Below, piece after piece: positions 27,397-61,945 of a stretch of DNA of 64,000 nucleotides (position 1 is the stretch's first letter; each line of letters opens with the position of its first letter). A program made the translations under genes and the position numbers. The stretch is from Halococcoides cellulosivorans (lineage in GTDB: Archaea > Halobacteriota > Halobacteria > Halobacteriales > Haloarculaceae): contig NZ_CP028858.1 of NCBI RefSeq assembly GCF_003058365.1, positions 496,001 through 560,000 of the forward strand. The letters are read 5' to 3'. The notes below the pieces were generated by a model, which was given only the letters and a program-made list of their open reading frames with translations, was not told where the DNA came from and ran no database searches.

Positions 27397-27477
27397 TCGA
27401 CCCGATCGATTCGACGCTCGCGTCTGCGCTCTGGAGCATCTGAATCCGGGTGCTGGCCGCCCTATCCACGTCGAAAT

Positions 27478-27540
27478 AATTTAATATTATCCTGGTTGAA
27501 TACTTTAAATATATATTTAAATTATAAAAAATACATTTGG
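27478..27540 (+). promoter_or_regulatory. AT-rich promoter region of the TrmB gene, with an 18-bp palindrome
   Basis: About 60 bp of nearly pure A+T stand in a GC-rich setting. At 27504-27521 is the perfect palindrome TTTAAATATATATTTAAA, directly followed by TTATAAAAAATACATTTGG, which contains a TATA-like box. The ATAAAAA-ACATTT core lies about 84 nt before the TrmB start codon; an equivalent ATAAAAACACATTT lies the same distance before the GH43 gene. An AT-rich palindrome over a promoter suggests autoregulation. Confidence 0.55.
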
Positions 27541-49289: not shown

Positions 49290-50252
49290 TCAGAACAGCG
49301 CGTCGTCGACGATGCTGGCGGGGCCACCGACCGACCAGACGTGCGTGTCGGTCCCGATGCCCGCGAGACGGTCCTGCACACGATCGACGGCGTCGGCGGT
49401 CGTGTTCACGTAGACGCTCGCGCCGGTGTCCGTCGAGAAGTAGGCGGGGATGTCCTCTTCGGAGCGGAGCTCTCGGACCGCCTCGAACACCTCGATGCTG
49501 CGGCCGTCCCAGTACACCCACCCCGAGGGGCCGGTCATCGTCGTCGCCGCGAGCGCGAGCGTGTCGCGCTCGGCCGTGTCCGCGACGCGGTCGAACGTGC
49601 CCGCGCGCAACGCGTCTTTCATCTCCGCGATCTGATCTCCGACCTGGGCGCGGCGGGCCTCGAACATCGGACTCGCGGCGGCCTCCTCGTGGGCGTCGTC
49701 GGTCTCCTTGTAGACGGGAATCTCGACGCCGACGACCCGCCAGTCCTCGACGGCCGATTCGAGGCGATGCGATCGGCAGTCCTGGTCGTTCAGGCCCGCT
49801 TCGAGCAAGGAGACGCCACCGGTGACCGCACGCGCCGCCGAGGCCGACCCGCGCCGGGCGATAGCCGAAATCCCGGGCCGCGAGAGGTCGAGGTCGGCGG
49901 CCGCGACGAGCGCCGTCGCGAGCGCCGCAAAGCCCGACGCCGAGGAGCCAAAGCCCACGTTCGAGGGAAAGGAGTTCTCGCTTTCCATTCGAACCCGCCG
50001 ATCGATGCCCGCGCGCTCGCGGACCGCGTCGACGACCGTCCGGATGCGCTCGGCCCCGCGCCCCTCGACGGGGTCGCCGCCGATCGCGTAGCGGTCGGCG
50101 TCGCGGTCCTCGAAGGCGACCGTCGTCGTGGTCGCCGCCGGCGCGGTACAGACGCTGATGCTGTCGTGATACGGGTAGCGGCCCGGCTTTTCGCGGAGGC
50201 CGTGGTACTTGACGAGCCCCTGGATCGGGTGGGCTCGCGCTGTCGCCTTCAT
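49290..50252 (-). CDS. Phosphomevalonate/diphosphomevalonate decarboxylase family
   Basis: A 320-residue GHMP-superfamily decarboxylase. It starts MKATARAHPIQGLVKYHG, the family N-terminus, has the GHMP motif FPSNVGFGSSASGFAALATA, the ARRGSASAARAVTGGVSLLE segment, and SGWVYWDGRSIEVFEAVREL near the C-terminus. In haloarchaea this family converts mevalonate 5-phosphate to isopentenyl phosphate, the alternative mevalonate route. Its presence is notable because genes of another archaeal route lie at 57179-60751. The ATG at 50252 is standard. Confidence 0.88.
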   Translation of the reverse strand: MKATARAHPIQGLVKYHGLREKPGRYPYHDSISVCTAPAATTTTVAFEDRDADRYAIGGDPVEGRGAERIRTVVDAVRERAGIDRRVRMESENSFPSNVGFGSSASGFAALATALVAAADLDLSRPGISAIARRGSASAARAVTGGVSLLEAGLNDQDCRSHRLESAVEDWRVVGVEIPVYKETDDAHEEAAASPMFEARRAQVGDQIAEMKDALRAGTFDRVADTAERDTLALAATTMTGPSGWVYWDGRSIEVFEAVRELRSEEDIPAYFSTDTGASVYVNTTADAVDRVQDRLAGIGTDTHVWSVGGPASIVDDALF

Positions 50253-50336
50253 GGTCGCTCCTGGGCGGGCGGGCACTTTGGCCTTCCTTCGCCGGCGAAC
50301 GAGGCAGTGATGTCGATGGCGGAGAAACATCGATGG

Positions 50337-50365
50337 TATTATTATTATTATTATTATTATTATTA
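50337..50365. repeat. Uninterrupted (ATT)9 trinucleotide microsatellite
   Basis: TATTATT... continues without interruption as nine ATT units plus flanking bases, then GATTTTACCC. It lies 18 nt before the ATG at 50383, exactly where the TATA box of a leaderless transcript would be expected (about 26-31 nt upstream). A pure trinucleotide run of this length in a GC-rich genome is striking; slippage could change promoter spacing. Confidence 0.9.
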
Positions 50366-50382
50366 GATTTTACCCTCTCTTC

Positions 50383-53300
50383 ATGGGACTATCCGCATCT
50401 GAAATCAGTATACGGAGGTATTTCGTATTGTTCCTCGTGGCTTGCCTCGTGATACCGGCTGCCACGATACCGACCGTCGGTTCCACGACTGCAGACGACG
50501 GTGATGTACTGACCGATGGGACCGCGAACACACCGCTCGAAGGGAAGTCGGTGGCTCGATCGACCGTTCGTGACTTGCCGGCCGAGAACGAACGTCTCCG
50601 GGACGGTCGGGACCGGGCCAGCCGTCGTATCAATCGGTCAATTCAGACGTTTCGGGACCCGGTTCGGGTTCAGAATCAGTCTGCTTTCGAACACGATGCG
50701 AACGCCATCGAAGCGCTCTCGCCGTATCTGGAGACGAATCGATCTGACGCCGTCGGTCAGGTCGAATCGTCTCTCGTACGGGCCGACCATGTGAGTGCGA
50801 ACCAGTCAGTCACGGATGCTCGTCGCGCTTTCAGGCTCTCGAAGGACGACCTCCCGCCGACTTCGTACTGGAGTGCCCGTTCGCACGTCTCGGAAGCCGA
50901 ACGGCTGTTCGAAGAGGCGGAGGACCTTCGAGAACGTGCGAACGAGACGACGGGTGATCGGCGCGTCGAGCTCACGACTCGGGCCATCAGGACCTACGGG
51001 ACTGCCGTTCAGCAGGCCAACGAAGCGTTGCGACTGATCGACGCCGATATCGGTCCGTCGGTCACAGTCGCCAGTCGATCGGATCCGATCGTCAACGACT
51101 CCGTTCGCGATCACTATAGCTTTCGAGGAACGATCGTGAATCCTCCCGGGTGGACGAACGTGACACTCACCGTCACAACGAACCGGACGCGAACGACGGT
51201 CAACCCACGGTGGAAGAACTACACGCACGCTCGCTTCTGGGCGGACCTCAATCGGACTGACCGGGTGACGGAGATCAGTATCGTGCCTACCCAGGGTGGC
51301 GAACCGATTCCTGGGGCGACCAACGCGACGATCCGTCTCGACGGTGACGGCCTGACCGATCGAACCGAGATCAACCTGACGGGGACCGATCCACTGGATC
51401 CAGACAGCGATTCGCCACTGACGACGGCCAACGAAAGCAGCAACGGGATCGTCGACGGTCGAGAGGATTTCGACGGTGACGGCCTTCTGACGAGCGAGGA
51501 GCAGTCGATCGGGACGCACCCACTCGATAACGACACCGACGGAGACGGTCTCAGAGACGCCTTCGAGATCAGCCGAACTCGAACGGATCCGACTCGACCG
51601 GATACAGACGGCGACGGCGTGCCTGACGGTGCGGAAGATCTGGACGGCGACGGACTGACGAATTTGGACGAACAGGCGGCCGGGACGCCACCACGATTTG
51701 CCGACATCGACGGTGACACGCTCACGGATCCAGCCGAACTCGCCAACGGAACTGATCCGCTCGATGCCGATACCGATGGGGACGGTCTCGACGACGACGC
51801 CGAACCCGCACTCGAAACTGATCCGCTCGACCCCGATACTGACGACGACGGGATACAGGACGGAAACGAGACGTTCACGACGACCGCCAGCAATCGGTCG
51901 CTCGGGGCGACCGTCACGCTGACGGGCGCGGGCAACGTTGCCGGTGGGGTCACCATCGACCGACAGGACGCACGATTCGCAACGTCGGATCGCATACAAA
52001 ATCGCAGTGTATCGACGGTGGCCGATATTCGATCCGAACGGTCTTTCGAAACGGCAAACGTGACGCTCTCGATCGATCGTCCTGCCGAATTCGAAAACGA
52101 GAGCGACCTCGCGATGTTCAGATACGATCCCGAACGGCAGATCTACATGCCACTGAATTCGTCGGTCGATCTGGACGATGGCACGGTGACGGCTCAGACC
52201 TCACACTTCTCGACGTTCGTCGTCTTCCCGGTGGCGAACTGGGCGTCAGACCTCTCGGCTGAGGACTCCTCGAACGAGAGCGACGAACTCAAGCCCGTCG
52301 ACGTGGTCTTCGTCATCGATTCTTCGGGATCGATGGGCGGGAACGATCCCCATGAGTTCCGGAAAGAGGCGGCGAAACGATTCGTCGGGTCCCTCCTCGA
52401 ACGCGATCGAGCCGGCGTCGTCGATTTCGATAACGACGGGGAACTCACGCAGTCGCTGACCTCAGAGCACGACGCGGTCAACGTGACGATCGAAAACCTG
52501 GACGCATACGGCGGGACCGACATTGGGGCTGGGCTCAGGGTCGCGAACGACCATTTCGCCGCTGCGAGTAACGACAGCCGGAGTCAAGTGACCGTGTTGC
52601 TCACAGACGGAAACGGAGAAGGGGGTATCGACGAAGCGCAAACGGCTGCCAGTCGGAACACGACGATCCACACGATCGGCTTTGGCAGTGCCGATCGGAC
52701 CAAACTCGATTCGATCGCCTCGATCACGAACGGCTCGTTCCACTACGTGGGAAGTGCCTCGGAGCTGCCCGAGGTCTTCTCGCGCGTGTCAGAAGACGTC
52801 AAACCGCCAGACACCGACGGGGACGGCCTGCCGGACCCACTCGAACGCCAGGGCATCCCGGTCGGATCGACTGGACTCGGAACGTCGACGATCCAGACCA
52901 ACCCGAACGCGAGTGACACCGACGGCGACGGCCTCTCGGACGGCGTCGAGGTCGGTGACCGCCACGAAGAGCAAGTGACGTTTTACGTCGATGGCCATCG
53001 CATCTCACACACGGTCACCTATTACGAACTCGTGAGTGATCCGACCAGCGTCGATGGTGACAGCGACGGCCTCGACGACGACGTGGAGTTCGAGGGCTGG
53101 GAGATTCCCGTCGAAAACGTCTCCGGAATGGATCGGCCCCTCCGCTTCGACACTGATTGCCAGTACGTTGAGTACGGCGGTGGGATCTTCTGGAGTGGCT
53201 GTACCGTCGACGATTCGATCAACGTGAGTTCGGATCCGTTACTGGTCGACAGCGATCGTGACGGCTTGAACGATAGCATCGAAAAGCGTCGGACGCACAC

Positions 53301-54969
53301 CGATCCCGAAGCAGTGGTCACCTACGGTCTGACGAAGCGGCAGGCTGGCGTCATGCGAACGCTGCGTGATCCCGGAACGATCGCGACGGGGACTATTGTT
53401 CGTCCCCAGAGCCTGGGAGTCCCGTCCGAGACTGTCGGTCGGGAGGTTTCGGTCGGTCGAGACGGATTCAACGACGCGACCTCGGATTTCGACTTCGTGA
53501 CGACGAACGAGTGGCCTCGCGATGCCAACGACGCTGGGGTGATCGAGGAGACGCTATCCTTCGAAGCGATAGACGGCGTCGAACGGACCGACACCTGGCA
53601 GTCGAACCGAGACGAGACGACAGTCGAAGCCAGTTCCCGGCTCGATCCGTGGAATCCCGATACGGACGGTGACGGTCTGACCGATGGCTGGGAGCGGACT
53701 GGGATCCACGAAGTCCGGCAAACGTTCGCCACCATGACTGTCGTGGATGCGAACGTCCTCGACGAGCGGACGAATGCGACGCGTCCCGATACCGACGGCG
53801 ACGGCGTCTGGGACGGATGGATCGGCGTGTACGACACGGATCGATCCACGAGTCGGAACGTCGTCCTGTACCGGGAACACCTCCACGACGACGATGGGTC
53901 GGGAGCCCCCAGCGGGATCGCCGGTGACGAAATCGTCAACGAACAGGTGGGTGTCCACGAGGTGACCGACGATCCCATGACGTCGGCCGCTCGATCGGCC
54001 GAACTCCCTGGCCGATCCGGTGAGTATCACTCGAACGTTCACGTGGGCGAACTACACTGGGGAACGGATCCGACGGACGCAGATCAGCTACCGGACCGAT
54101 CACTGACTATCGAAGTGGATTACATCGAGGGACGGAATCCTCGCAATCTCACGCTCTCGAACGGCAACGACGTGCTCGAACAGACCAGGATGAACTATGC
54201 GCTGTACGGCATCGATCTCACGTTCGAAGCCGACGACTCACTGTCGCAGTCCGACCTCGAAAACACCTGCCGGGCAGTCAATCTGTTCGAACCCGATCGG
54301 CAACCGGGCTTCAAAGCGTTCGGGCCGGTCCTCGACGACGGAACTGGTCTGATTACGAAGACTCGCTCTGGTGGCATCGGCGAGGTTCACTCCCGGATCG
54401 AATGCATCGAACCGGACGCATTCAACGTCTGGGAGACTGATCTGGTGGAGGACGCCTACCACGACGATCCATCGACGCTGCACCTGTTCTGGTCCTCCTC
54501 GCATGGGTCTGATATTCCCAAATACGTGCCCCACGACCTCTCACCGATTCCGGAAGGCGTCAACGGAATGGAGGGGCACACTGGTTCGCCGACACAGACC
54601 GCGTTCATCGAGAATATCTGGGGAACGCCCCACGGAACCGTTATGTTCGACGACGCCATGACGTCCCCAGAAGGGAAGCATCGAGTTCTCATGGAAGAGA
54701 TCGGTCACGGACTGAGTGCCGGATGGCTCGACGATAAACTTCTGAAGATCGGCGAATGCTATAGTGGTGACTTTTGCTATGGGATCGGTCCCGGCGGCCG
54801 CGTGACTGGCGGGGGCGATGACTTGACTGTCGAAGCGATTGAAGGGTCGAAAAATGGAGATTGGCCAGTTATGGGAAGAGCCGATTATTTCGGATCCGAG
54901 AGAACTGCATTCAGTATCGAGGAGTTAGTGACTATTGATTTTAAGGGGATACCAACGAAAGATGAGTGA
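50383..54969 (+). CDS. Giant secreted surface protein: TSP3 repeats, VWA domain, zincin-like C-terminal tip
   Basis: A 1528-residue exported protein. A Sec-type signal ([20 protein letters not shown], about 13-32) is followed by a helical region (45-230) and a beta region, thrombospondin type-3 Ca-binding repeats (about 320-500, DTDGDGLxD type), a beta segment, a VWA domain (about 638-800) with MIDAS motif DSSGSMGG at 646-653 and [10 protein letters not shown], and more TSP3 repeats (about 810-1140). The C-terminal about 150 residues (1381-1528) hold [17 protein letters not shown] (Glu1438, His1442), resembling a metzincin helix in which the first His is replaced by Glu. The gene overlaps the following lipoprotein gene by 8 nt. 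The tip is repeated at 55479-55931. Its layout resembles a toxin-delivery stalk with a variable tip. Confidence 0.85.
54523..54738 (+). repeat. 216-bp near-identical tract shared with 55482-55697
   Basis: From TACGTGCCCCACGACCTCTC to GGCTCGACGATAAA the two tracts are colinear, with about seven single-base differences by eye, after which the reading frames diverge clearly. Such a tract could serve for homologous exchange of the tip. Confidence 0.85.
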
Positions 54970-55438
54970 TCGAATATCGCGGCGAAAACTGATAGCGTCC
55001 GTACCGGCTGTCGGATCGTTGAGCGGTTGTCTATTCGTTGCGGGCGGTCCGACATCGCGTAACCTCGACTTGGAGGGTGTGAGTGTCCGGGAGCAGCCTG
55101 ATGGTACTCATGAGGTTACAGTCACGACTGACTTTTATGTCCGGAACCGGAACGAATCCGAAGCGTTTCGTGACGTATCCATTATTGGAATTACTGATTC
55201 GAGCATTCACTGTCGAAACAGGATTGACGCTAATTCGGAGAGTCTCGCGTATGAAAACATAGTGGTGACGTTGCGATGTCGCCAATTGCCCAAGTATATT
55301 ACAACGACACTCACTGGATCGTGTACGAAAACCCATTTTCCAGTGTACCGACTGACTCTGTCGGATGGAAATGCGTCCCTCAGTTACGTCGGAGACCGCT
55401 ATTGTGACGACAATTTGACCGCAATTCCCGAACGATAG
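54962..55438 (+). CDS. Tat-type lipoprotein A, candidate immunity/inhibitor protein
   Basis: A 158-residue protein. [19 protein letters not shown] contains a twin-arginine motif and a lipobox with Cys23, so the mature protein is anchored outside the membrane. The mature part is a beta-rich domain of about 135 residues with four cysteines (IHC, LRC, GSC, RYC), probably two disulfides. It begins 8 nt before the end of the giant protein gene (ATGAGTGA), a translationally coupled arrangement. Closely related to lipoprotein C (56531) and more distantly to B (55924). Unknown family; the neutralising role is inferred from layout. Confidence 0.8.
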
Positions 55439-55478
55439 TATCGGGTCCCGAGCGGACCAGTACTGCTCTGATGTTTAA

Positions 55479-55931
55479 ATGTACGTGCCCCACGACCTCT
55501 CACCGATTCCGGAAGACGTCAACGGAATGGAGGGGCATACTGGCTCGCCCACGCAGACCGCGTTCATCGAGAATATCTGGGGAACACCCCACGGAACCGT
55601 TATGTTCGACGACGCCATGACGTCCCCAGAAGGGAAGCATCGAGTTCTCATGGAAGAGATCGGTCACGGACTCAGTGCCGGATGGCTCGACGATAAAGGG
55701 CTCAAGATCGGCGAATGTTACAGTGGCGGCTACTGTTATGGGATCGATCCCGGCGGTCGGGTGACTGGCGGCGGCAATGATTTAACGATTGAATCTACAC
55801 AACGCTATTCTGATGGCCTGTGGCCGATTATGGGCGATGCGAATCCGATCGACAAAACACAACGAACGGCCTTCAGTATCGAAGAGATTCTAACGATTAA
55901 TTTCGTTAACATTCCCAGCAAAGATGAGTAA
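55479..55931 (+). CDS. Orphan copy of the zincin-like tip domain (150 residues)
   Basis: A stand-alone copy of the C-terminal tip of the protein at 50383, without signal peptide or stalk. It starts [20 protein letters not shown] and keeps [17 protein letters not shown] (Glu59, His63). DNA is about 97% identical to 54523-54738, then the protein diverges ([12 protein letters not shown] in the long protein, YSDGLWPIMGDA here) before a common ending TAFSIEE...IPSKDE. Lacking an export signal, it looks like a silent donor module for tip exchange rather than an active protein, although an ATG is present. It overlaps lipoprotein B by 8 nt. Confidence 0.8.
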   Translation: MYVPHDLSPIPEDVNGMEGHTGSPTQTAFIENIWGTPHGTVMFDDAMTSPEGKHRVLMEEIGHGLSAGWLDDKGLKIGECYSGGYCYGIDPGGRVTGGGNDLTIESTQRYSDGLWPIMGDANPIDKTQRTAFSIEEILTINFVNIPSKDE

Positions 55932-56397
55932 AAGAATCTCGAGGAGATGTGTCCTCCTCAGCGTGCCAACTTTTGCAAGTGTGAGCGGTTGCATCAGCCC
56001 TGGTGGCCCTCGGAGTAGGACACTTGCACTCAGAGATATCGAGTTCGAAAGTCAATCAGAATCTTACAAGATTGATGCAGTGGCATACTTCAGCGTGAGG
56101 AATCAGGACTTAAGAGAGGAGGTCCACGATGTGAAGTTAATTGGGTTTAGATCCAATCAAATCGTTTGCAATCGGCCAATCTCTCCGACCTTTTCCAGTA
56201 GTCTATCTCATGAAGAGCCAATTTCGGTAACTTGTCCCAAAGAGGTGAGTTATCTGACGATGACGGTTGAGGAACAGCGATGCCAGAATTCACTATTTGG
56301 GGTATACAAGATTAACGAGGCAAGTTCTGAGAGCCGGTCTGAATTTATTGGGTACCGCGAATGTAATGAGTCGTTGACGACTATCCCGACACGATAG
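55924..56397 (+). CDS. Tat-type lipoprotein B, candidate immunity/inhibitor for the orphan tip
   Basis: A 157-residue protein with ISRRCVLLSVPTFASVSGC at the N-terminus: twin Arg and a lipobox Cys23. It belongs to the same family as lipoproteins A and C by layout and the four mature cysteines (IVC, VTC, RC, REC), but is the most divergent of the three. It overlaps the end of the orphan tip (ATGAGTAA), just as A overlaps the long protein. The gene is visibly richer in A+T than the rest of the window, suggesting different ancestry. Pairing of the most divergent lipoprotein with the divergent tip is what specificity pairs would show. Confidence 0.78.
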   Translation: MSKRISRRCVLLSVPTFASVSGCISPGGPRSRTLALRDIEFESQSESYKIDAVAYFSVRNQDLREEVHDVKLIGFRSNQIVCNRPISPTFSSSLSHEEPISVTCPKEVSYLTMTVEEQRCQNSLFGVYKINEASSESRSEFIGYRECNESLTTIPTR

Positions 56398-56440
56398 CTT
56401 AGTATCTTATTTATATTATTCCGAATGTAGAATAGTCGGC

Positions 56441-56538
56441 AGTGATTGGGATATCTGATGGTAATAGAGGGAATGGATTTGATTTTGGAGGAATTGCCAA
56501 CAGTCGTCTTAAAAAATATTCCATCGAAAGATGAGTGA
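56441..56538 (+). pseudogene. Decayed third copy of the tip C-terminus
   Basis: Immediately before lipoprotein C, one frame reads DLILEELPTVVLKNIPSKDE then stop, matching the ends of the other two tips ([20 protein letters not shown] and AFSIEEILTINFVNIPSKDE). Upstream, SDWDI followed by a stop resembles the GDWPVM/GLWPIM segment, so the reading frame is broken. The same 8-nt ATGAGTGA junction to the lipoprotein is preserved. This is a remnant of a third tip/lipoprotein cassette. Confidence 0.7.
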
Positions 56539-57007
56539 TCGAATATCGCGGCGAAAACTGATTGCGGCTGTACCGGCCGTCGCATCGCTTAGCGGCTGCT
56601 TGTTCGTTCCAGGCGGGCCGAAAGCACGTGATCTCGATCTCGACAATGTGACTGTGCGGGACCAGCCCAATGGTTCGTACGAAATTACAGTTCAAACTGA
56701 CTTCTACGCTCGGAATTGGGACGAATCCGAAGCGTTTCGTGACGTATCGATTATTGGATTTACCGATTCGAGCGTTCAGTGTCGAGATCAGATCACCGCC
56801 GACTCGGAGAGTCTCGCGTATGAAAAGATAGCGGTGACGCTCCGGTGCCAACATTTGCCAGAGTATATCACGACTGCATTCTCTGGATCCTGCACGAACA
56901 CTCACTTTGGAGTGTACCGATTGAACCGGTCGGATGGCGATGCATCCATCGAATACGTCGGCGAACGTTCCTGTGGCGACGATGTAACTGCAATTCCCGA
57001 ACGATAG
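56531..57007 (+). CDS. Tat-type lipoprotein C, candidate immunity/inhibitor protein
   Basis: A 158-residue protein beginning [20 protein letters not shown] with lipobox LSGC (Cys23) after a twin-arginine motif. It is colinear with lipoprotein A with no gaps that I can see and keeps all four cysteines (VQC, LRC, GSC, RSC); differences are spread over the mature domain (for example KSRD against NRID stretches). It follows a decayed tip fragment. In a toxin/immunity scheme it would be a retained orphan immunity gene protecting against a variant tip present in other strains. Confidence 0.8.
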   Translation: MSDRISRRKLIAAVPAVASLSGCLFVPGGPKARDLDLDNVTVRDQPNGSYEITVQTDFYARNWDESEAFRDVSIIGFTDSSVQCRDQITADSESLAYEKIAVTLRCQHLPEYITTAFSGSCTNTHFGVYRLNRSDGDASIEYVGERSCGDDVTAIPER

Positions 57008-57178
57008 TATCGGGTTTCTGGGTGGCCCAACAGGGGCCCTTTCATATCCTATCCGATCTGGCCGTTGACGTTCGTCAGGGCCCGCTCTAAGGAGTGCTCA
57101 CTCTCGACAGCCCCCGCCCGTTCCCGGCAGATGGCGGCAAACCTGAACGGTTTTACCCGTCATCGGCGTGGCCCGTGT

Positions 57179-58486
57179 ATGGGACTCAGGAGCGTCCTCG
57201 ACGCCCACCCGGATCCGACGCGACTCACACAGTCGGTCGATCCGGACGCCGAACTCCCGGCGCTCGCGGTCCAGGACGCCGCGACGCCGACGATTTTCGA
57301 GTCGGTGGCGGGCTACCCCGACTGTCGAGTCGCCACGAACTGCATCGGGACGCGAACAGCCATCCGCCGGGCGATCGACACCGACGAGTCGCTCGTTGCA
57401 GCGATGTCGGCCGCGATGGCCGACCCCGCACCGCTCGAACGGACGGTACCGGTCGCCGCTCGCGAGGTCGCGACCGATCCGGACGTCCGCGAGCACATTC
57501 CGATCCCGGACTACTACGAGGCCCACGATCGTCGCTATCTCGCCTCCAGCGTCGTGATCGCCGAGGACCCCGACACCGGGACGCACAACCTCTCTTTCCA
57601 CCGGATGCAGTATCTCGGCGACAACGAGTTCGCCATTCGGCTGGTCGAACGCCACCTCCACGACATCCATTCGCGTACCGAGGGCCCGACACCGATCGCC
57701 GTCGCGATGGGCGTCCACCCCGCGGTCGAACTCGCCGCCGCGACGTCGATCGCCCCCGGTGAGAGCGAACTCGAACTCGCGAACCGCCTCCACGGCGGCC
57801 AGTTGGCGACCGATTCTCTCGACGGCTTGACCGTCCCGAGCGAGAGCGAGGTGCTCATGCTCGGCGAGATCACGTCGGAGACGGCCGAGGAGGGCCCGTT
57901 CGTCGACCTCTCTCGGACCTGGGATCGCACGCGCGAGCAACCCGTGGTCCGCGTGAACACGCTCATGACGCGGCCAAATCCCCTCGTGCGCATCATCGTC
58001 CCCGGGCGGGCCGAACACGCGAACCTCATGGGTGTGCCCCAGGAGCCCCGGATCTATCGGATCGTCGAGAACGCGGTCCCGACCGTCGCAAACGTCGTGC
58101 TCACCCACGGCGGGTGCTCGTGGCTCCACGTCGTCGTCGCGATCGACGTCCGGACCCAGGGCGACGCGAAAAACGCCGGTCTCGCCGCACTCGCGGCCCA
58201 TCCGTCGCTCAAGCGCGTCACGATCGTCGATGCCGATATCGACCCGAGCGACCCCGAGGCCGTCGAGTGGGCGGTCGCGACCCGAACGCAGCCAGATCGC
58301 GACGTGGAGGTGATCGAGGGCGCGGACGGGTCTTCGCTCGACCCCTCCCAGGACTTCGCAACGGGCACGACCGCGAAGTGGATCGTGGACGCGACGCGGC
58401 CGCGCGGGCCCGATCGTGAGGCCAGCGAGTTCCGCGAAGCGAGGATTCCCGGGGAGGACGACATCGACCTGGAGGAGTTCGAATAA
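57179..58486 (+). CDS. UbiD-family decarboxylase, probable anhydromevalonate phosphate decarboxylase
   Basis: A 435-residue prenyl-FMN-dependent UbiD homologue. Family features are IPIPDYYEAHDRRYLASSVV, TGTHNLSFHRMQYLG, the ENAVPTVANVVLTHGGCSWL stretch, and the C-terminal VDADIDPSDPEAVEWAVATR with QPDRDVEVIEGADGSSLDP. It heads an operon with aconitase X large and small subunits and the cofactor enzyme UbiX, the gene set of the archaeal modified mevalonate pathway, where it would decarboxylate trans-anhydromevalonate 5-phosphate to isopentenyl phosphate. The ATG at 57179 is used; its stop (TAATG) overlaps the next start by one base. Confidence 0.88.
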   Translation: MGLRSVLDAHPDPTRLTQSVDPDAELPALAVQDAATPTIFESVAGYPDCRVATNCIGTRTAIRRAIDTDESLVAAMSAAMADPAPLERTVPVAAREVATDPDVREHIPIPDYYEAHDRRYLASSVVIAEDPDTGTHNLSFHRMQYLGDNEFAIRLVERHLHDIHSRTEGPTPIAVAMGVHPAVELAAATSIAPGESELELANRLHGGQLATDSLDGLTVPSESEVLMLGEITSETAEEGPFVDLSRTWDRTREQPVVRVNTLMTRPNPLVRIIVPGRAEHANLMGVPQEPRIYRIVENAVPTVANVVLTHGGCSWLHVVVAIDVRTQGDAKNAGLAALAAHPSLKRVTIVDADIDPSDPEAVEWAVATRTQPDRDVEVIEGADGSSLDPSQDFATGTTAKWIVDATRPRGPDREASEFREARIPGEDDIDLEEFE

Positions 58487-59664
58487 TGCACCTGACTACC
58501 GAAGAAGAGGCGCTGCTCGATTCGTCGAACCCCGCCGAGCGCAAGGCGATGAACCTCCTCGTCGAACTCGGTGACATCTACGGGGCCGACCGCCTCGTCG
58601 AGATCGGGTCCGCCCAGGCCTCGGGGATCTCGTATAAGTCGATCGGCGACCCGGGCGTGCAGTTTCTGGAGTCGTTCGCCGAGGAGGGCGCGAAAGCGTC
58701 GGTGCCAACCTTTACGAACCCGGCGGGGATGGACTTCGAGCAGTACGAGGCCGTCGGCGTCGACGAATCGTTCGCCCAGAATCAGCGCCGGATTCGCGAC
58801 GCGCTCGACGCGATGGGGATCACCCTCTCCTTTACGTGCACACCCTACCTGGCGGGCAATCTCCCTCGCGCGGGCGAACACGTCGCGTGGGCGGAGTCCT
58901 CGGCAGTCTCCTTTGCGAACTCGGTGATCGGCGCGAAGACGAATCGTGAGGGCGGACCGTCTGCGATCGCCGCCGCGATCACCGGGCGAACGCCCGAACA
59001 CGGCCTCCATCTCGATCACAACCGTCGGCCGACCCACCGGGTGCGCGTGGATGCCGATCTGGACTCGACCGCCGATATCGCCGCGCTGGGTTCGTGGGTC
59101 GGCCGCCGCGTCGAGGACGGGATCCCCTACTTCTCGGGGATCGAGGCCGCCGACACCGACGATCTGAAAGCGCTCGGCGCGGCGATGGCCGCCTCCGGCG
59201 CGGTCGCACTCTATTACGTCGAGGACCTGACGACGGATCGCGACCCGCCGACTGGCGTCGAGAGCCTCTCGGTCGGTGACGCGGAACTCGACAACGAGTA
59301 CGACCGCCTGCGCACCGATGCCGACCCCGATCTCGTCGTGATCGGCTGTCCGCACGCCTCGCCCGCCGAAATCGCGGAGATCGCTGCCCGTGTCGACGGG
59401 GAGTCTCTCGACGCGGACCTCTGGGTGTGTACGAGCGCCGCAGTCCGGGCCCAGGCCGAGCGTAACGGCCACGTCGCGACGATCGAGGCCGCCGGCGGAT
59501 CGGTGCTGGCCGACACCTGCAACGTCGTCGCGCCGATCGAGGCGATGGACTACGCAGTCACGGCGACCGACTCCGCGAAGGCCGCGAACTACCTGCCCGG
59601 ATTCTGCGAGCAGACCGTCGTGTTCGACGATCGTGCCAGCCTCATCGAGGGGGTGCTCGCGTGA
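58486..59664 (+). CDS. Aconitase X large subunit, probable phosphomevalonate dehydratase large subunit
   Basis: A 392-residue AcnX catalytic subunit. It shows the DUF521 pattern: MHLTTEEEALLDSSNPAERK, IGSAQASGISYKSIGDPGVQ, TCTPYLAGNLPRAGEHVAWA, SAVSFANSVIGAKTNREGGP, and the C-terminal LADTCNVVAPIEAMDYAVTA with a cluster-ligand Cys. In archaea this enzyme with its small subunit (next gene) dehydrates mevalonate 5-phosphate to trans-anhydromevalonate 5-phosphate using a [4Fe-4S] cluster. The operon with UbiD and UbiX favours this over the hydroxyproline dehydratase activity known for other AcnX proteins. Confidence 0.88.
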   Translation: MHLTTEEEALLDSSNPAERKAMNLLVELGDIYGADRLVEIGSAQASGISYKSIGDPGVQFLESFAEEGAKASVPTFTNPAGMDFEQYEAVGVDESFAQNQRRIRDALDAMGITLSFTCTPYLAGNLPRAGEHVAWAESSAVSFANSVIGAKTNREGGPSAIAAAITGRTPEHGLHLDHNRRPTHRVRVDADLDSTADIAALGSWVGRRVEDGIPYFSGIEAADTDDLKALGAAMAASGAVALYYVEDLTTDRDPPTGVESLSVGDAELDNEYDRLRTDADPDLVVIGCPHASPAEIAEIAARVDGESLDADLWVCTSAAVRAQAERNGHVATIEAAGGSVLADTCNVVAPIEAMDYAVTATDSAKAANYLPGFCEQTVVFDDRASLIEGVLA

Positions 59665-60179
59665 GCGATTCCGACGGGGCGACGGACGCCACCGATGCCG
59701 AGAGCGCCGACGAGAGGGACCCCGCGGACTGGTCGGTCGCGGACGGCACCGCGATCACCGAGGGGACCGCGACGGGTGAGGTCCTCCGCTCGGACGAACC
59801 GATCAGCTTCTACGGCGCGGTCGATCTCGATACGGGCGAATTCATCGAGGAGGGCCACGACCTCGAAGGGTCGTGTATCGACGACAAGGTCCTCGTCTTC
59901 CCACGTGGGAAAGGATCGACGGTCGGATCGTACGTCCTGTATGGCGTCGCCCAGAACGGCGTCGGCCCGGCGGCGATCGTCCTCGAGGAGACCGAGACGA
60001 TCGTCGCGACGGGGGCGATCCTCGGGGAGATCCCCTGCGTGGACGGGCTCGAAATCCCGCTGGACTCGCTCGCCGATGGCGAGCGAGTCACCGTCGACGC
60101 CGACGCGGGCGAACTGCGTCGCGTGGACGCCGCGGCGGACGCTGATTCAGTTGCGGACAGCGACGCGAGCGATCGATGA
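59661..60179 (+). CDS. Aconitase X small (swivel) subunit, DUF126
   Basis: A 172-residue protein with a DUF126/swivel domain (about 35-150): GTATGEVLRSDEPISFYGAV, ATGAILGEIPCVDGLE, and KVLVFPRGKGSTVGSYVLYG, with an acidic N-terminal extension of about 30 residues and a short acidic C-terminal tail. It completes the active site of the AcnX dehydratase encoded just upstream. The start is a GTG overlapping the previous stop (GTGA), and its own stop overlaps the UbiX start (ATGA). Confidence 0.9.
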   Translation: MSDSDGATDATDAESADERDPADWSVADGTAITEGTATGEVLRSDEPISFYGAVDLDTGEFIEEGHDLEGSCIDDKVLVFPRGKGSTVGSYVLYGVAQNGVGPAAIVLEETETIVATGAILGEIPCVDGLEIPLDSLADGERVTVDADAGELRRVDAAADADSVADSDASDR

Positions 60180-60751
60180 CACGGATCGTGCTCGGAATTT
60201 CCGGGGCGTCGGGGATCCCGCTGGCGGTCCGCACGGCCGAGTCGATCGCCGCCCACGCCGAGTTGATCGTCGTCGTCACCGACGCCGCCGAGTCGGTGAT
60301 GGCCCACGAGGGCCCGGGCCGGGAGGAAACGATGGCCCACCTCGACCAACTCGCGACCGCGGTGTATCACGACGACGAGATCACTGCGTCGGTCGCCTCC
60401 GGGTCGGTCGACGCGCGCGGCATGGCGATCGTGCCCGCGTCGATGCACACCGTCGCGGCGGTCGCCGACGGGCACGCCGACGGCCTGCTGACCCGCGCCG
60501 CCGACGTCTGCCTGAAAGAGGACCGCCCGCTCGTGGTCGTGCCCCGCGAGACGCCGATGAGCGAGATTCACCTGGGGAACTTGGAGCGTCTGGCCGGGGT
60601 CGGGGCCAGTGTCGTCCCGCCCGTGCTCGGATTTTACTACGAACCCGATGGGATCGACGACGTGCTCGATCATCTGGCGGGCAAGGTTCTCGATCGGTTC
60701 GACATCGAGCATTCGCTCGGTGAGACGTGGTCTGGCGACGGGCGACTGTAG
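60176..60751 (+). CDS. ubiX: UbiX-type flavin prenyltransferase
   Basis: A 191-residue flavoprotein. It starts with the nucleotide-binding loop TRIVLGISGASGIPLAVRT, then SVASGSVDARGMAIVPASMH, LTRAADVCLKEDRPLVVVPR, ETPMSEIHLGNLERLAGVGA and VPPVLGFYYEPDGIDDVLDH, all typical. UbiX attaches a dimethylallyl group to FMN, producing the prenyl-FMN that the UbiD enzyme of the same operon needs. As last gene of the four, it rounds off the pathway module. Confidence 0.94.
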   Translation: MTRIVLGISGASGIPLAVRTAESIAAHAELIVVVTDAAESVMAHEGPGREETMAHLDQLATAVYHDDEITASVASGSVDARGMAIVPASMHTVAAVADGHADGLLTRAADVCLKEDRPLVVVPRETPMSEIHLGNLERLAGVGASVVPPVLGFYYEPDGIDDVLDHLAGKVLDRFDIEHSLGETWSGDGRL

Positions 60752-60854: not shown

Positions 60855-61945
60855 GTTTCAGACGGACCCCTTGTGGGGTTGAAGCAGGTCCCGCGATGGC
60901 TGAAGCTGGCGGCGATCGCGTTTCAGACGGACCCCTTGTGGGGTTGAAGCGACGCCGACGAACGCGAGAAAATCGCAGAGGCCGCGTTTCAGACGGACCC
61001 CTTGTGGGGTTGAAGCAACTGCCTCAATGACCTAGGGACCGACGGCGTGAGGGGTTTCAGACGGACCCCTTGTGGGGTTGAAGCGCTATCCATCGATTCA
61101 AGGTCTTTAGTCATAACCATAGTTTCAGACGGACTCCTTGTGGGGTTGAAGCGGCTTTACGTCCGACGAAATCGAACCGCCGAACGAGTTTCAGACGGAC
61201 CCCTTGTGGGGTTGAAGCGGGGTCGGTGCCGCCGCCTGGCGTGGCAACGCTCGTTTCAGACGGACCCCTTGTGGGGTTGAAGCCGTCTCGGGATCGGGGT
61301 TGCGGCCGGTGACCTGGTTTCAGACGGACCCCTTGTGGGGTTGAAGCACCGCCTGAGATTCCTGCCCGCTCAGGTCGTCGTGATGTTTCAGACGGACCCC
61401 TTGTGGGGTTGAAGCGAGGTCGGGGAGACCTACTCCGCGAGCAATCTGACGGGTTTCAGACGGACCCCTTGTGGGGTTGAAGCACCGAGTCTCGGCCGGT
61501 CGAGACGATGACCGTGCGGTTTCAGACGGACCCCTTGTGGGGTTGAAGCGTCACGGGTGACCAGTGATGTCGTGGACTGTTGTCGTTTCAGACGGACCCC
61601 TTGTGGGGTTGAAGCCCTCTTTGGGATCTTTTTCCGTAAAAGACCCATAAGTTTCAGACGGACCCCTTGTGGGGTTGAAGCCGAATCAGGTCGAGCAGGC
61701 TGTGGTACAGTTCGCGGTTTCAGACGGACCCCTTGTGGGGTTGAAGCATAACTGAACACCCGTAGGAAAACCTACGGTAAAAGTTTCAGACGGACCCCTT
61801 GTGGGGTTGAAGCGCAGGAGACGATCGCCGCAGCCTACCACGCACTGCGTTTCAGACGGACCCCTTGTGGGGTTGAAGCGGCCCCTGGAACTCGATCGCC
61901 ATGCGAGTGTCCTGGTTTCAGACGGACCCCTTGTGGGGTTGAAGC
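60855..61945 (+). CRISPR. CRISPR array, 17 repeats of 31 bp and 16 spacers, type I-B-like
   Basis: The repeat starts GTTTCAGACGGACCCCTTGT and ends GGGGTTGAAGC. It contains a small hairpin CCCC-TTGT-GGGG. Repeats begin at 60855, 60920, 60986, 61054, 61122, 61188, 61253, 61317, 61385, 61453, 61519, 61585, 61651, 61717, 61783, 61849 and 61915. Only repeat 5 has a change (C to T at 61135). Spacers are 33-37 bp and all different. After the last repeat the sequence CGTCGGGTTGAAGTACC (about 61961-61977) looks like a decayed further repeat end. No cas gene is present within the window, neither upstream nor in the 2 kb downstream. Confidence 0.98.

What the first reader, a model, noticed from the sequence alone, without database searches (positions are those of the whole stretch)
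50337..50382. (ATT)9 microsatellite at the expected TATA position of the giant surface protein gene
A pure trinucleotide run of nine units occupies 50337-50365, 18 nt before the start codon. Most haloarchaeal transcripts are leaderless, so the TATA box would fall within the run. Slippage would shift promoter spacing in 3-bp steps: a possible phase-variation switch for a surface effector, rarely considered in archaea.
Basis: partly seen in the sequence, partly recalled or inferred. Interest (0 to 1): 0.7.

Follow-up and report, generated by a model that had tools for sequence, protein, structure and literature searches.

The report
ATT microsatellite in archaeal toxin promoter
A salt-loving archaeon carries an exceptionally long, pure ATT repeat exactly where the TATA box of a giant toxin-like surface-protein gene should lie; it probably serves as that TATA box, but small changes in repeat number would leave the core promoter unchanged, so a simple on/off spacing switch is unlikely and no length variation has been seen.

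Summary
A pure 29-bp period-3 run (50337-50365, 9.7 units) ends 17 nt before the ATG of a 1528-aa secreted protein gene (50383-54969). It is the only ATTx7 place in its 2.72-Mb, 65% GC genome. ATTx6 occurs at one place in 10 of 391 haloarchaeal genomes, and this is the longest. Extrapolated chance expectation is about 1e-8. It lies at the expected TATA position: homologous genes carry AT-rich TATA elements there, and the divergent gene has its own conserved promoter elsewhere. The run holds the haloarchaeal TTWT motif in every register. The gene looks like the trunk of a polymorphic toxin: VWA and TSP3 domains, a zincin-like C-terminal domain, an overlapping lipoprotein gene and downstream orphan cassettes. 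The proposed mechanism is not supported as stated. The run's 3' end is fixed relative to the gene, so slippage does not change TATA-to-start spacing; alleles with 7-16 units are identical from -40 to -1. Only severe contraction, or upstream elements (none found), could make length matter. MutS and MutL relatives are present. No second strain was available, so variability is untested. Most likely this is a slippage-born repeat serving as an over-long TATA region, with phase variation unproven.

The parts
50337..50365 (+). Pure ATT/TAT microsatellite, 29 bp, 9.7 units, at -46 to -18 of the giant gene; contains TTAT (TTWT) every 3 bp from -44 to -23
50366..50382 (+). Spacer GATTTTACCCTCTCTTC between run and ATG; T-12/A-11 fits the haloarchaeal WW '-10' element; no Shine-Dalgarno motif evident
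   Evidence: by eye
50286..50336 (+). Upstream flank of the run; GAAA (BRE-like) at -59; TCGATGG direct repeat is at chance level
50383..54969 (+). Giant secreted protein, 1528 aa: signal/TM segment, TSP3 repeats, VWA domain, C-terminal zincin-like domain with EEIGH
54962..55438 (+). Lipobox-type lipoprotein, ATG overlapping the giant gene's stop; putative immunity protein
55452..55931 (+). Orphan copy of the C-terminal domain (76-80% identical), without signal peptide or trunk
55924..56397 (+). Second putative immunity lipoprotein, overlapping the orphan cassette
56531..57007 (+). Third lipoprotein, preceded by a remnant cassette end (~56485-56540)
   Evidence: remnant by eye
49290..50252 (-). 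Divergent (di)phosphomevalonate-decarboxylase-like gene; its own core promoter (CCAAAGTG, about -31 to -22) is conserved in relatives, so the run is not its TATA box

Best explanation
The run is a true microsatellite that grew by replication slippage inside the AT-rich core promoter of a polymorphic-toxin-like gene, and it now serves as an over-long TATA region for a leaderless (or nearly leaderless) transcript. TBP could bind any of several identical TTAT registers; the one about 29 nt before the start, fixed by the downstream WW and start site, would set initiation. Because the run is anchored at its 3' end and periodic, gain or loss of a few units leaves the core promoter sequence unchanged; only contraction to about 5 units or fewer would bring GC-rich flank into the TATA/BRE zone. 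Shown: the repeat, its rarity, its position, promoter homology, allele invariance and the neighbouring toxin-like array. Inferred: TBP binding, start site, slippage origin and toxin function.
For: Rarity far beyond chance. Position matches the AT peak at -30 to -25 in 116 gene starts of the same genome. Homologous genes in related genomes carry AT-rich elements at the same place, e.g. CGAAACGTAAATTTAATTGG and ACGAAAATAATATAATAATGG, the latter close to an ATT/AAT seed. The divergent gene has a separate conserved promoter in relatives. TTWT is the haloarchaeal TATA motif (PMC4983044), present at -44 to -23 every 3 bp; alleles with 4 or more units keep TTAT at -29, and those with 7 or more are identical back to -40.
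Against: No transcript start is mapped. No consensus BRE (CGAAA) sits directly before the TATA zone; the nearest GAAA is at -59. TTATTATT is not as strong as the TTTTA-type elements seen upstream of other genes (by eye). My de novo TATA matrix failed: it converged on coding-sequence noise. A start further upstream with a 20-25 nt leader containing part of the run is not excluded.
Confidence: 0.6

Rival explanations
1. Phase- or rheostat-type switch: repeat number changes alter toxin expression by moving upstream elements (a BRE, regulator site or chromatin protein) relative to the core promoter, about 100 degrees of helix per unit, as at nadA of Neisseria or sabA of Helicobacter.
For: A long uninterrupted repeat is a good slippage substrate; the gene is a surface/secreted effector, the typical class; archaeal PolB and PolD slip in vitro, shown on a hairpin template with direct repeats (PMC4134008); nadA shows that spacing of distal elements can matter (PMC2791445).
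Against: No operator above chance upstream; core promoter invariant for small changes; MutS and MutL relatives present; haloarchaea are polyploid with gene conversion, which equalises alleles (PMC4056108); no variant allele seen.
Confidence: 0.1
2. Neutral microsatellite: the run arose by slippage in an AT-rich intergenic stretch and has no role beyond tolerated sequence; another element drives the gene.
For: The other nine ATTx6 runs are nearly all intergenic and most lie far from a start codon; prokaryotes show no general enrichment of short tandem repeats (PMC12699852).
Against: It exactly covers the TATA zone of a gene whose homologs have TATA-like elements there, and no other AT-rich element lies between it and the ATG except GATTTTA at -17 to -11.
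Confidence: 0.2
3. Leadered transcript: TFB/TBP bind at GAAAC...GGTATTAT (-59 to -40), transcription starts inside the run about 20-25 nt before the ATG, and repeat number changes the leader and the start-site context.
For: GAAA at -59 lies 11 nt upstream of the first TTAT; about 28% of Haloferax protein-coding transcripts are leadered (PMC4983044).
Against: BRE-to-TATA gap is too long compared with 2-3 nt in homologs; no Shine-Dalgarno motif evident by eye.
Confidence: 0.1

Closest known systems
nadA promoter TAAA repeat, Neisseria meningitidis (PMC2791445)
   Same: Simple repeat upstream of a surface-protein gene; changing length moves distal elements relative to the core promoter
   Different: There the repeat is upstream of the core promoter with known NadR/IHF sites and variation shown; here it is the TATA zone itself, with no known operator and no variation shown
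Haemophilus influenzae hifA/hifB TA repeat (van Ham 1993, listed in PMC11868660; details from memory)
   Same: Repeat within a divergent intergenic region acting on a core promoter
   Different: Bacterial -35/-10 spacing is changed directly; archaeal TATA-to-start spacing is not changed here
Helicobacter pylori sabA repeat rheostat (PMC4081817)
   Same: AT-rich promoter repeat proposed to tune expression in steps
   Different: Bacterial sigma promoter, variation shown; not so here
Polymorphic toxin systems (PMC3482391)
   Same: Long secreted trunk with variable C-terminal domain, adjacent small immunity-like gene, downstream orphan cassettes, zincin-type tips
   Different: Haloarchaeal trunk with VWA/TSP3 rather than RHS or filamentous haemagglutinin repeats; the putative immunity protein is a lipoprotein; toxicity untested

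Membership tests
Phase-variable promoter simple-sequence repeat (contingency locus) | Long uninterrupted short-unit tandem repeat in or next to a promoter | tested here: met
   position
Phase-variable promoter simple-sequence repeat (contingency locus) | Repeat number varies among cells or isolates | not testable with these tools
   no other genome of the genus held; no raw reads
Phase-variable promoter simple-sequence repeat (contingency locus) | Change in length changes the spacing of promoter elements | tested here: not met
   core promoter from -40 to -1 identical for 7-16 units; only sequence upstream of the run moves
Phase-variable promoter simple-sequence repeat (contingency locus) | Change in length changes expression | not testable with these tools
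   needs a reporter assay
Haloarchaeal core promoter (TATA of a leaderless gene) | TTWT motif about 24-31 nt before the start | tested here: met
   TTAT at -32, -29, -26; motif from PMC4983044
Haloarchaeal core promoter (TATA of a leaderless gene) | BRE (CGAAA) directly upstream of TATA | tested here: not met
   nearest GAAA at -59; homologs have it at about -37. BRE is not invariable in haloarchaea
Haloarchaeal core promoter (TATA of a leaderless gene) | Transcript start at 0 to -5 | not testable with these tools
   no transcript data
Polymorphic toxin system | Shared trunk with exchangeable C-terminal domain | tested here: met
   trunk about 50% identical to G020 copies while C-terminal domains differ; G001 C-terminal copy 63-66% identical in a short open frame
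Polymorphic toxin system | Adjacent immunity gene and orphan cassettes | tested here: met
   lipobox-type lipoprotein ORF next to the C-terminal domain in most homologs; orphan cassette array in window
Polymorphic toxin system | C-terminal domain toxic, neighbour protective | not testable with these tools
   needs experiments; HExxH motif is EEIGH here

The most novel reading that the evidence does not exclude
The repeat is an archaeal contingency promoter: length changes in the ATT run set the expression of a polymorphic toxin in individual cells, through upstream-element phasing or occasional deep contraction that destroys the TATA box.
Probability: 0.08. Interest if true: 0.75.

Novelty: new member of a known kind. 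Interest (0 to 1): 0.4.

Why it matters
A recent phase-variation review names archaea only as a direction for future surveys (PMC11868660). This locus is a clean place to test it: the longest ATT run found in 391 haloarchaeal genomes, in the core promoter of a conflict gene. It also makes a general point: in archaea a repeat that is itself the TATA zone is buffered against slippage, unlike a bacterial -35/-10 spacer repeat.

Tried and rejected
Learning a TATA/BRE weight matrix from 464 kb of the genome failed: it converged on coding-sequence signal because start codons are uncertain; I relied on AT profiles, homologous promoters and the published motif instead. An upstream operator: the TCGATGG direct repeat is found at this level in 27% of random stretches. 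The run as promoter of the divergent mevalonate gene: rejected, that gene has its own conserved element. A structured RNA: no Rfam match. Repeats marking an inserted island: no shared edge words. Named relatives of the giant protein in genome contigs: none. Structure prediction of the C-terminal domain: useless, mean pLDDT 29. Solved-structure search: one hit at E 0.31 only.

Full report
Observation. The run is real and exact: 29 bp of period 3 at 50337-50365, ending 17 nt before the ATG at 50383. The genome is 65% GC. ATTx7 occurs only here in 2,723,120 bases. In a 464-kb sample the next longest period-3 run is 14 bp, and extrapolated decay gives about 1e-8 expected runs this long per genome (a rough extrapolation). 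Of 391 Halobacteria genomes, 10 have ATTx6, each at one place, the others 18-26 bp long and nearly all intergenic. One of these, in G141, also sits 22 nt before a start codon.

Which gene it serves. The upstream gene runs the other way (mevalonate-decarboxylase family). In most of 34 relatives that gene has a conserved element of the type AACTGCCAAGTG at about -31 to -22, and here GGCCAAAGTG stands at that place; so the run is not needed as its TATA box. The giant gene is not next to this gene in the relatives where both were placed. Homologs of the giant gene have AT-rich elements at -31 to -20, several preceded by GAAA. In this genome AT content peaks at -30 to -25 of gene starts. In Haloferax volcanii 72% of protein-coding transcripts are leaderless and the proposed haloarchaeal motifs are TTWT for TATA, CGAAA for BRE and WW at -10 (PMC4983044). 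The run offers TTAT at -44 to -23 every 3 bp, and TA stands at -12/-11.

Mechanism. I wrote out alleles from 0 to 16 units. The 3' end of the run is fixed relative to the ATG. From 7 units upward the sequence is identical back to at least -40, and TTAT at -29 persists down to 4 units. Slippage therefore cannot shift TATA-to-start spacing; it moves only what lies upstream. The GAAA box moves from -53 (7 units) to -65 (11 units), both outside BRE range. In homologs the GAAA box lies at about -37; in this promoter it would lie there with about 2 units. The expansion may thus have displaced an old BRE, but a four-letter match is weak evidence. The direct repeat TCGATGG upstream is at chance level.

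Is it variable? Not testable: no other genome of the genus is held and no reads are available. Against high variability: MutS and MutL families are present, and haloarchaea examined are polyploid with gene conversion (PMC4056108). For it: archaeal replicative polymerases slip in vitro, on a hairpin template with direct repeats (PMC4134008).

The gene. P0001 has TSP3 repeats and a VWA domain. Its C-terminal domain carries EEIGH, while other members carry HE[ILTV]GH, suggesting a zincin-like peptidase fold (inference, since the structure prediction failed, and no solved relative was found). The stop codon overlaps a lipobox-type lipoprotein. Then follow an orphan copy of the C-terminal domain (76-80% identical) with a second lipoprotein, and a remnant with a third. 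In most homologs a similar lipoprotein ORF adjoins the C-terminal domain. This is the layout of polymorphic toxin systems (PMC3482391). Toxicity is not shown. The toxin-like array is AT-richer (35-60% GC) than its neighbours (68-71%), as expected of acquired DNA.

Verdict. The sequence feature is striking and well placed; the switch as proposed is not supported, and phase variation remains a low-probability but testable reading.

Noticed in passing
54962-57007: Array of three paralogous lipoprotein genes interleaved with one orphan and one remnant copy of the giant protein's C-terminal domain: a haloarchaeal polymorphic-toxin-like cassette array.
   Followed up: partly
50383-54969, C-terminal domain: The zincin-like motif reads EEIGH here and in several relatives, HE[ILTV]GH in others; a conserved substitution of the first histidine.
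   Followed up: partly
57065-60751: UbiD, aconitase X (large and swivel subunits) and UbiX-type flavoprotein genes close to a mevalonate-decarboxylase-like gene: parts resembling two alternative branches of the archaeal mevalonate pathway within about 11 kb. Aconitase X is over cut-off in 5 of 58 genomes searched, this one included.
   Followed up: partly
60855-61615: CRISPR-like array (repeat GTTTCAGACGGACCCCTTGTGGGGTTGAAGC); the genes in the 3.7 kb before it are metabolic, not cas.
   Followed up: no
27474-27533: Second AT-only block (30 bp, TTTAAATATATATTTAAATTATAAAAAATA), very unusual in this GC-rich window.
   Followed up: no
L074 (G141): Another haloarchaeal ATT run of 22 bp, 22 nt before the ATG of a 135-aa ORF: a second case at the TATA position.
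   Followed up: partly
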